From Branchiostoma floridae (taxonomy: Eukaryota; Chordata; Leptocardii; Amphioxiformes; Branchiostomatidae), in assembly GCF_000003815.2 (NCBI RefSeq), contig NC_049979.1:6542196-6606195 (forward strand): 64,000 bases of DNA, read 5' to 3'. The notes under the pieces are model-generated. The model worked only from the letters and a program-made list of their open reading frames with translations, was not told the DNA's origin and did not search any database. The position numbers were made by a program, and so were the translations under genes. How positions within the stretch are numbered: the stretch's first letter is position 1; each line of letters starts with the position of its first letter. Positions 41,001 through 44,000 of the stretch are shown here, piece by piece.

Positions 41001-44000
41001 GAGATTCCACCCCGCTAATCACGTGCGGGCAAGGCCCTCTGGCGTCTGTGTTTACATTTCCGCGCGCGGGAACGCAAGGGGTGGGAGGGGCTGCCGGCTA
41101 CGAGACAGCGGTACGGCGGGCCGGTGCTGTAAAACACCTCCCTTCGAGTTGATAACTTCCTGAAACAGCGAAGGCGCGTGCTTGGCGCGTGCCTATGTAT
41201 TTTTACTACGATATTTTTCTTTCATTCCCCATTTTTTTGCCGCTACGCTGGATGAAAAAGCAGCGTAGCGGTCTTTTTACAGCGTCATTTTTCCAGCCCA
41301 CAGCGTATCGGCCCGCTATGCTGAAAAGGCCTGGCGAGAACACTGAAGTCTGTAAGACTCAAATATATGAATGTAATTGTAATCACTGTGTAGACAACAG
41401 ACACAATGCTGTACTGCACCTGCTGTAAGATCATGATGTTGAGCTCCCTCTCTAACACATCTATCTCACCTGCTGTAAGATCATGGTGTTGAGCTCCCTC
41501 TCTAACACATCTATCTCACCTGCTGTAAGATCATGATGTTAAGCTCCCTCTCTAACACATCTATCTCACCTGCTGTAAGATCATGATGTTGAGTCCCTCT
41601 CTAACACATCTATCTCACCTGCTGTAAGATCATGAGGTTGAGAAACACATCTATCTCACCTGCTGTAAGATCATGATGTTGAGCTCCCTCTCTAACACAT
41701 CTATCTCACCTGCTGTAAGATCATGATGTTGAGCTCCCTCTCTAACACATCTATCTCACCTGCTGTAAGATCATGATGTTGAGCTCCCTCTCTAACACTC
41801 TCTCCCTCTCTAATCTATCTCACCTGCTGTAAGATCATGATGTGGAGCTACTCCTCTAACACATCTATCTCACCTGCTGTAAGATCATGATGTTGAGCTC
41901 CCTCTCTAACACATCTATCTCACCTGCTGTAAGATCATGATGTTGAGCTCCTCCTCTAACACATCTATCTCACCTGCTGTAAGATCATGATGTTGAGCTC
42001 CCTCTCTAACACATCTATCTCACCTGCTGTAAGATCATGATGTTGAGCTCCCTCTCTAACACATCTATCTCACCTGCTGTAAGATCATGATGTTGAGCTC
42101 CCTCTCTAACACATCTATCTCACCTGCTGTAAGATCATGATGTTGAGAAACACATCTATCTCACCTGCTGTAAGATCATGATGTTGAGAAACACATCTAT
42201 CTCACCTGCTGTAAGATCATGATGTTGAGCTCCCTCTCTAACACATCTATCTCCCGCTCTGCCAGTTCCTTCTCCCTCTTCTTCAGCTCCTCCTCCTGGA
42301 TCTGCTGTTGCAGTAACGCATGCGTCAGTTCCTCCTCACGGGACCGCAGCTCCTGAAGTCACAGATGGTCACATTAGCAAGGAAAGAAACTGTGTTTCCT
42401 ACTTTCAAAAATTGGAATTCATTATAGCTCATCAACAAAATCAGATTTGGAACATTTTGAAGTGGGGTACAATACACATTGCCCTATCGAGTTAATTTTT
42501 GTTATTCTTCTGTACAATGATAGGGGTCCTCATGACATTTTGTGATCACAGTCTTTTGTTCTTGGATTACAGTTTTGCAGTTACTCATGTGTGTCTTTAT
42601 TTTTGTATGTTTAAAATGATTTTCTTTCTGTAAGACTGTTTTTCATCAACAATAAAAAGATTACTGTAAGTCTACTTATTTCCGGGGTGTCTTTAGATTC
42701 GCGGAATTCGCGGAGACCTTCGTACCGCGAATCTACTTCTCCGCGGATGTGTTTGGTGTAAATGCGCCCCCCTCCCCAAATGCATAATTTTCACGGCCGA
42801 CCTCGAGATACTAGTACTAGTAAGATCAAAGCAAGGAGTGATGCAAAAACAACACACATTCGATCATGTAAACGATATCAAAAGTTTATTCAAAGTATAC
42901 ATATGTACAAAGTATGATTTTTGTCTCAAGAAACTTATCTTTGTTCGTTGTTCTCTCCATAGGAAGAAGAATCACGCCACAAAACTGTGACTACAAGCGT
43001 TGAGCACCGCCGTGCGAACTTGCGATTTACATTGTTGTTACACACTTCAAAATCATACATGTGATCGTCTTAATAAAGAACTTGTTTTATCGAAAATATT
43101 GTCGTAATTACTAGTGAGGTAGAACTGTGGTGTGGTACAAACAATTCTGCTAAACTGAAATTTCTACAAGAAAACAAAATGGCGGCGATCTGTTTACAAT
43201 TTACAAAACGTAATGAGGACAAGTCTCGAAGAATTTTCAGGTTTTACTAACAGTTAAAAACAAGATTACCGTTCACAAAAATCGTAAATTACGTACTGTA
43301 CAATGTCAATATATTAACAACTTCTAATAAAAGCTACTAGCACTAGAATTAACGGAAAGAAAACTAAACAGTAAACTTGCATTTCTAACGTTACAAGAAA
43401 ACAAAATGGCGGCGATCTGTTTACACTTTGACAAAACGCAACGAGTACAAGTTGCGAAGAATCTTCAGGTTTCAATTTCCTCACAAGCAGTTCAAAACAA
43501 GATAAAATCGTAGCTTACAATATTAATACACTACCAAATTCTACTGAAAGCGGCTGGTACTAGAATTAGCGGAGAGAAAATGACTCTAAACTTGCATTTT
43601 TACAAGAAATCAAAATGGCGGCGACTTGTTTACAATTTGAGAAAACGTAATGGTAACGTTTACCGGCGTGCCTTCTCCGCCACAGCTCGGATGCCGGTCC
43701 GCTCCCAACCTCTCTCGATGGCCGCTGAGTTGTCCTTCACTCTGTCGAAAGCGCCGAGCAGCCAGTTGGCGTGGAGGGGCTTCAGTGTAGTCAGCTTCAA
43801 GTCCACCTTCACTTCCGACAGGTCTCGCCCCTCCTTTCTCTCCTTGGCAAAGCAGTCACCGTAGAACGACACGAAACTCTGGGTCAGGTCCCGTTTCAGC
43901 ATGTCGTTGATCCCACCGTCCGCATCGAGGGGCTGCAGCTGTCCCGTGCAGCTCGCTGGGACGAAGACGGGGATGATGTTGGCCTCCTTCAGTTTCTCCA

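What the first reader, a model, noticed from the sequence alone, without database searches (positions are those of the whole stretch)
41417..42252. A minisatellite has amplified a 5' splice site: 17 consecutive MLK exon-end/donor copies
The repeat unit is not anonymous intronic DNA. It is the last 47 nt or so of the leucine-zipper exon plus the donor. The intron therefore opens with 16 further exon-like fragments, each ending CAG|GTG, at about 50-bp intervals. The first (42206) is the only donor that keeps the MLK frame; any later one appends Val-Arg and then TAG, giving a kinase truncated before CRIB or an NMD target. The most distal copy, at 41417, is the only one with CAG|GTGCAG. The others have CAG|GTGAGA, formed because the joined unit starts with GAGATAG. 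So the duplication itself seems to have created stronger donors than the ancestral one. Copy-number variation could tune splicing or U1 occupancy.
Basis: seen in the sequence. Interest (0 to 1): 0.88.

Follow-up and report, generated by a model that had tools for sequence, protein, structure and literature searches.

The report
Repeated splice site in lancelet kinase gene
In what looks like a lancelet (amphioxus) kinase gene, the last 48 letters of one exon with its splice signal are copied 16 more times into the intron; this is a known lancelet peculiarity called a mirage, and similar rows of copied splice signals turned up in several other genes of the same genome.

Summary
On the minus strand of 41417-42253 there are 17 successive CAG|GTG donors (16 units: 11 of 50 bp, 3 of 41, one of 49, one of 64). 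The unit is the last 48 nt of the MLK zipper exon plus GT. The first donor (42205) keeps the frame into the next MLK exon; each of the 16 later ones reads ILQQVR-stop. Only the distal copy has GTGCAG.

It is a known kind: minisatellites across exon-intron boundaries, called "mirages", are printed for amphioxus Adh3, globin, troponin C and PGBD5 genes, and are said not to disturb splicing. That copy number tunes splicing is untested.

New here: three CAGGTGAG at 30-60 bp spacing occur 2310 times in this genome against 10 for the reversed word, though other words give weaker ratios. In 9 further arrays in 8 genes (dynein twice, SKP1, PKC, MAP4K3, TMEM87A, TALPID3, GT90, SNF2) conserved coding sequence ends at the first donor.

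Most likely a tolerated tandem duplication over the 5' splice site, with the first donor used. RNA data are needed.

The parts
42206..42352 (-). MLK zipper exon, 147 nt, [10 protein letters not shown]...ELNIMILQQ; its last 48 nt are the exonic part of the unit
   Evidence: joined to the exon before it, matches MLK4 4uya and MLK1 4uy9 across the junction, 14 residues into this exon
41417..42253 (-). minisatellite array: exon-end copy plus 16 intronic units, 17 donors
42200..42208 (-). first donor CAG|GTGAGA, the only one that keeps the MLK frame
41414..41422 (-). distal donor CAG|GTGCAG, followed by the unrepeated intron; probably the ancestral intron start (inferred)
39465..42205 (-). intron, if the first donor is used
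   Evidence: acceptor CCACAG|ATGGCAGAGGAG at 39464
39365..39464 (-). next exon, 100 nt, [33 protein letters not shown]; resembles the human MLK stretch before and into CRIB (resemblance recalled)
46457..46693 (-). exon before the zipper exon, end of the kinase domain, ends KEK|GTGAGA; the 5' limit is that of the open frame, not a mapped acceptor

Best explanation
This is an amphioxus mirage: a minisatellite grown from the 5' splice site of an old exon. A first duplication joined intron position +2 or +3 to exon position -48 or -47 with one shared base (G). That put exon letters GAGA after the first GT, so that GTGCAG became GTGAGA at the exon, and moved the old intron start downstream (inferred from the flanks). 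Slippage or unequal exchange then made 17 copies (inferred). The first donor, which abuts the real exon, is used and keeps MLK intact; all the rest is intron (inferred from frame and from printed mirages; no RNA seen here). The extra donors are tolerated rather than selected (inferred).
For: Unit is 48 exonic plus 2 intronic nt; left flank, joint and right flank fit one duplication. First donor is phase 0 into the next MLK exon, 16 of 16 later ones stop at VR. Printed mirages have the same anatomy and RT-PCR there suggests regular splicing. The anatomy recurs next to conserved exons: dynein, SKP1 (37), PKC (38), MAP4K3 (39), TMEM87A (40), TALPID3 (34), GT90 (32), SNF2 (56).
Against: No transcript was seen. 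None of 17 differences among 16 units falls in the donor 9-mer and donor words look over-represented in arrays, so pure neutrality is not proven. Four of the first dozen kinds of array found by donor words showed no coding exon at all; in the C1 sample 8 of 20 arrays did not.
Confidence: 0.83

Rival explanations
1. Functional array: copy number tunes the share of a truncated kinase without CRIB (VR-stop) or of NMD-targeted transcripts, or a row of U1-binding donors strengthens definition of the zipper exon.
For: 16 of 17 donors are strong by duplex energy; 0 of 17 differences lie in a donor 9-mer; every later donor gives the same stop.
Against: Printed mirages are reported not to disturb splicing. 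Array is young-looking and homogeneous, so unchanged donors need no selection. No RNA or population data were on hand.
Confidence: 0.12
2. Recursive splicing: each CAG|GTGAGA acts as a zero-length exon and the intron is removed in steps.
For: Each unit places AG directly before GT; pyrimidine share before it, 0.56, equals that of the true zipper-exon acceptor.
Against: No long pyrimidine tract; the next exon's acceptor is better (0.75). Nothing shows that the AGs are used.
Confidence: 0.02
3. Assembly artefact: the array is a collapse or expansion error.
For: The globin paper says that one mirage was aberrantly assembled in the older draft genome.
Against: Units differ in an ordered way, with private changes and a 41-bp variant at three places; several other arrays with the same anatomy occur elsewhere.
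Confidence: 0.03

Closest known systems
Amphioxus mirages in Adh3 and globins BflGb6, BflGb9 (PMC3087553, passages seen; original Adh paper not held)
   Same: Tandem repeats over an exon-intron boundary that copy splice signals; genuine exon kept; in BflGb9 the 3' end of an exon is copied, as here
   Different: Different gene; 17 copies here against 3 and 6 repeat units in the two BflGb6 haplotypes; donor here probably changed by the joint
Repeats over splice sites in lancelet PGBD5 and troponin C (PMC3902484, passages seen)
   Different: Repeats there are few and imperfect; no stop in every copy is described in the passages seen
Intron gain by tandem duplication of AGGT (model named in PMC3087553; a potato case, PMC4974935, seen only as listing and start of abstract)
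   Same: Duplication copies an AG|GT signal inside a gene
   Different: There a new intron arises inside an exon; here the donor of an existing intron is multiplied and no new intron is evident

Membership tests
amphioxus mirage | tandem repeat whose unit spans an exon-intron boundary | tested here: met
   48 exonic plus 2 intronic nt; exon is MLK
amphioxus mirage | copies carry AG/GT splice signals | tested here: met
   17 of 17 CAG|GT
amphioxus mirage | found in a cephalochordate | tested here: inconclusive
   assembly of 513,431,437 bases in 431 contigs fits Branchiostoma floridae by recalled size; no name given
amphioxus mirage | regular splicing in spite of the repeats | not testable with these tools
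   no RNA data on hand
amphioxus mirage | length instability between alleles | not testable with these tools
   one assembly only; one match
intron gain by tandem duplication | a newly gained intron | not tested
   age of this intron position could not be compared with other species here
recursive splice site | good acceptor with pyrimidine tract fused to a donor | tested here: inconclusive
   AG|GT fused, pyrimidine share 0.56, as in the true zipper-exon acceptor

The most novel reading that the evidence does not exclude
5' splice sites are preferred seeds of minisatellites in this genome, so that hundreds of genes carry a row of intact, nearly equal donors of which only the first makes a normal protein, and the surplus donors are kept because they help (for instance by raising U1 occupancy at the exon end), not merely tolerated.
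Probability: 0.12. Interest if true: 0.78.

Novelty: new member of a known kind. Interest (0 to 1): 0.5.

Why it matters
How a cell chooses among equal donors is an old question. Here nature has set up the test: rows of 10 or more near-identical donors behind conserved exons of MLK, SKP1, PKC, TMEM87A and a GT90 enzyme, where in most cases read only the first choice keeps the protein (in SKP1 the 45-bp unit stays open over the two further donors checked). If the first always wins, nearness to the exon or order of transcription outranks intron-proximal preference. The arrays are also raw material for intron gain, as the globin authors proposed. The kind is in print; a genome-wide census I did not find in six searches of the held library, which lacks most subscription journals.

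Tried and rejected
Breakpoint tied to the donor: in 14 arrays the intronic share of the unit looked low (mean 0.24, P 0.00026 against uniform; 6 of 14 with at most 4 intronic nt, P 0.0038). I reject it. I had left out arrays with short exonic parts (L006, L015, L065, L066, L067), and loci were picked partly because their units looked coding. With MLK plus the 10 exon-supported arrays of the C1 sample my hand mean is about 0.46 (first unit used for L065, L066, L067), so no bias.

Word excess as a clean number: triple-word counts against the same word reversed are 2310:10 (CAGGTGAG), 2436:124 (AGGTRAGT), 267:59 (AAGGTAAG), 244:17 (GAGGTAAG), 479:166 (CAGGTATG); for non-donor or poor-donor words 254:1 (CAGCTGAG, mostly one dispersed family; its reverse has a CpG) and 433:162 (CAGGTCAG). 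Scaled by word counts in 110,412 non-array bases (window plus 26 loci), a hand geometric mean gives about 5.6-fold for four donor words over seven others; GAGTCGAC (1 match, 0 in the sample) was dropped. The sample counts are 1 to 12, so this is suggestive only. AAGGTAAG is inflated by one large array on C1.

First donor stronger than last: of 18 clusters 2 gave a single copy; of the other 16 the first is stronger in 8, equal in 7, weaker by 0.1 in 1; three of the last copies lack GT. But arrays were found by strong donor words, so this is biased.

Selection on donors from the change map: 2 of 17 differences in a 29-nt core, but the core limits were set after looking, and the 41-bp variant counts three times.

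Misses: Pfam named nothing for 14 of 20 single peptides; of the 6 with a hit, one is a set of sub-threshold coiled-coil matches and one a weak stray match. PDB gave no hit for one dynein exon that Pfam did name. Pfam had no hit for my joined MLK peptide nor for a CRIB-region peptide. In one search a search for the CRIB exon by a guessed string failed and a scan for kinase and SH3 motifs printed nothing; the CRIB remainder ADFEHKITV is known only as an open frame near 38740, acceptor not checked.

Full report
The array. On the minus strand of 41417-42253 a unit of about 50 bp repeats 17 times. It is the last 48 nt of an exon plus GT. Spacing is 50 bp in 11 of 16 units, 41 in three, 49 and 64 in one each. 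16 of 17 donors read CAG|GTGAGA; the most distal reads CAG|GTGCAG. The whole array matches one place in the assembly.

The gene. The exon (42352-42206) starts after GACTTCAG| and codes [10 protein letters not shown]...ELNIMILQQ. Joined to the exon before it, it matches MLK4 (4uya, 1.3e-22) and MLK1 (4uy9, 1.5e-21) across the junction and 14 residues into the zipper exon, where those chains end. The next exon, 39464-39365, codes [15 protein letters not shown]...ISMPS, which resembles the human MLK stretch after the zipper (recalled). The zipper exon ends in phase 0, and the join reads through in frame. From each of the 16 later donors the reading is ILQQVR-stop (16 of 16), upstream of the CRIB-like stretch that I know only as an open frame near 38740. 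With introns downstream such a transcript would be an NMD candidate (general knowledge).

How it arose. Left flank: exon GCGG|GAGATAG; joint: CAGGT|GAGATAG; right flank: CAGGT|GCAGTAC. One base, G, is shared at the joint. The simplest order is that GTGCAG was the old intron start and the joint gave the exon a new one, GTGAGA. Duplex energy with the U1 end (letters recalled) is -6.8 kcal/mol for the old and -11.1 for the new.

What is known. Repeats over exon-intron boundaries in amphioxus were called mirages in Adh3. The globin paper reports them in BflGb6 and BflGb9, cites other loci, says that Adh3 data and globin RT-PCR suggest regular splicing, notes length and somatic instability, and proposes them as a source of introns (PMC3087553, passages). 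A PGBD5 paper adds PGBD5 and cites troponin C (PMC3902484, passages). The original Adh paper is not held. In listings of seven searches I saw no paper on such repeats at an amphioxus MLK gene or on a genome census; the library lacks most subscription journals.

How common. Three CAGGTGAG in a row, 30-60 bp apart start to start, occur 2310 times against 10 for the word read backwards; two in a row 3559 against 23. The differences, 1249 against 13, approximate the number of runs of two or more copies; one array can hold several runs, and the tool warns that its counts may be incomplete. Other words give weaker and uneven ratios and the control words are not empty (figures in Tried and rejected). 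Many donor-bearing arrays exist; I claim no exact excess.

Are these exon ends? The listings are cut at about 100 rows each and all lie on contig C1. From them I took 20 arrays and left out one dispersed family at four C1 places. In 5 of 20 the first donor ends an exon supported by homology: dynein heavy chain twice, TALPID3 (34), MAP4K3 (39), TMEM87A (40). In 5 of 20 there is only an open frame of 41 to 174 codons. One is the reverse reading of an acceptor-side array in the dynein gene. One is a coding repeat. In 8 I judged that no coding exon is there (one has an 83-codon frame without homology, one a masked flank). From I fetched 8 of 14 listed arrays, partly because they looked coding; SKP1 (37), PKC (38) and GT90 (32) are supported by homology, five are not. 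From I fetched 5 of 22 because their units looked coding; SNF2 is clear (4.4e-19), helicase C and AMP-binding are below Pfam's cut-off, two have no hit. From I fetched 1 of 19; it shows no exon. In the nine supported arrays the match reaches the last residue or two before the first donor. So these arrays start at real exon ends, as at MLK; the share among all arrays is only roughly known.

Mechanism. The best reading is tolerance. A tandem duplication that straddles a boundary leaves the first donor in place and turns the rest into intron. Which donor is used is inferred, not shown. Exon definition from the acceptor at 42352 and order of transcription favour the first; the intron-proximal preference of older competing-donor work (recalled) would favour the last. 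A DOK7 study says that SR protein binding, distance and strength decide between close donors (PMC5585400, passages). The array is thus a natural test. Each unit ends CAG|GTGAGA, so an array AG used as acceptor would rebuild the same donor and could be spliced again (inference).

Verdict. It is a new member of the amphioxus mirages, with many copies and a donor that seems improved by the duplication. The functional reading is possible and untested. That other conserved genes here carry rows of surplus donors lifts the interest above that of a curiosity.

Noticed in passing
L043, L006 (G000:C1 about 220-232 kb): One dynein heavy chain region carries several boundary arrays: three donor clusters at 221-230 kb, and arrays whose units hold an acceptor-like end (TRF 367-790 in L043, 2486-3094 in L006).
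   Followed up: partly
G000:C1 8046905, 9479867, 20224900, 29239707: A dispersed family with about 51-bp units, each with an acceptor-like stretch, a short spacer and a donor; at two places it occurs on both strands close together.
   Followed up: no
G000:C2 6909952, 19666906, 20303100, 20307031; C3 11227145, 15319314, 17461534, 18261611: Arrays with a shared unit ...TTCAGCAC(C)AAGGACAG|GTATG at several places; the one fetched (L085) showed no exon at the first donor.
   Followed up: partly
23989-24047: A 29-bp exact two-copy repeat that starts TCAG|AAAACC before an open frame; may be a small acceptor-side duplication; the peptide had no Pfam hit.
   Followed up: partly
34917-35025: A 54-bp two-copy repeat lies in an open frame ([18 protein letters not shown] twice) downstream on the MLK strand.
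   Followed up: no
43660-45174: A 504-codon frame on the minus strand inside the intron before the zipper exon matches DDE_1 endonuclease (3.9e-07): a DNA transposon.
   Followed up: partly
57611-58337: A 162-bp unit in 4.5 copies, not examined.
   Followed up: no
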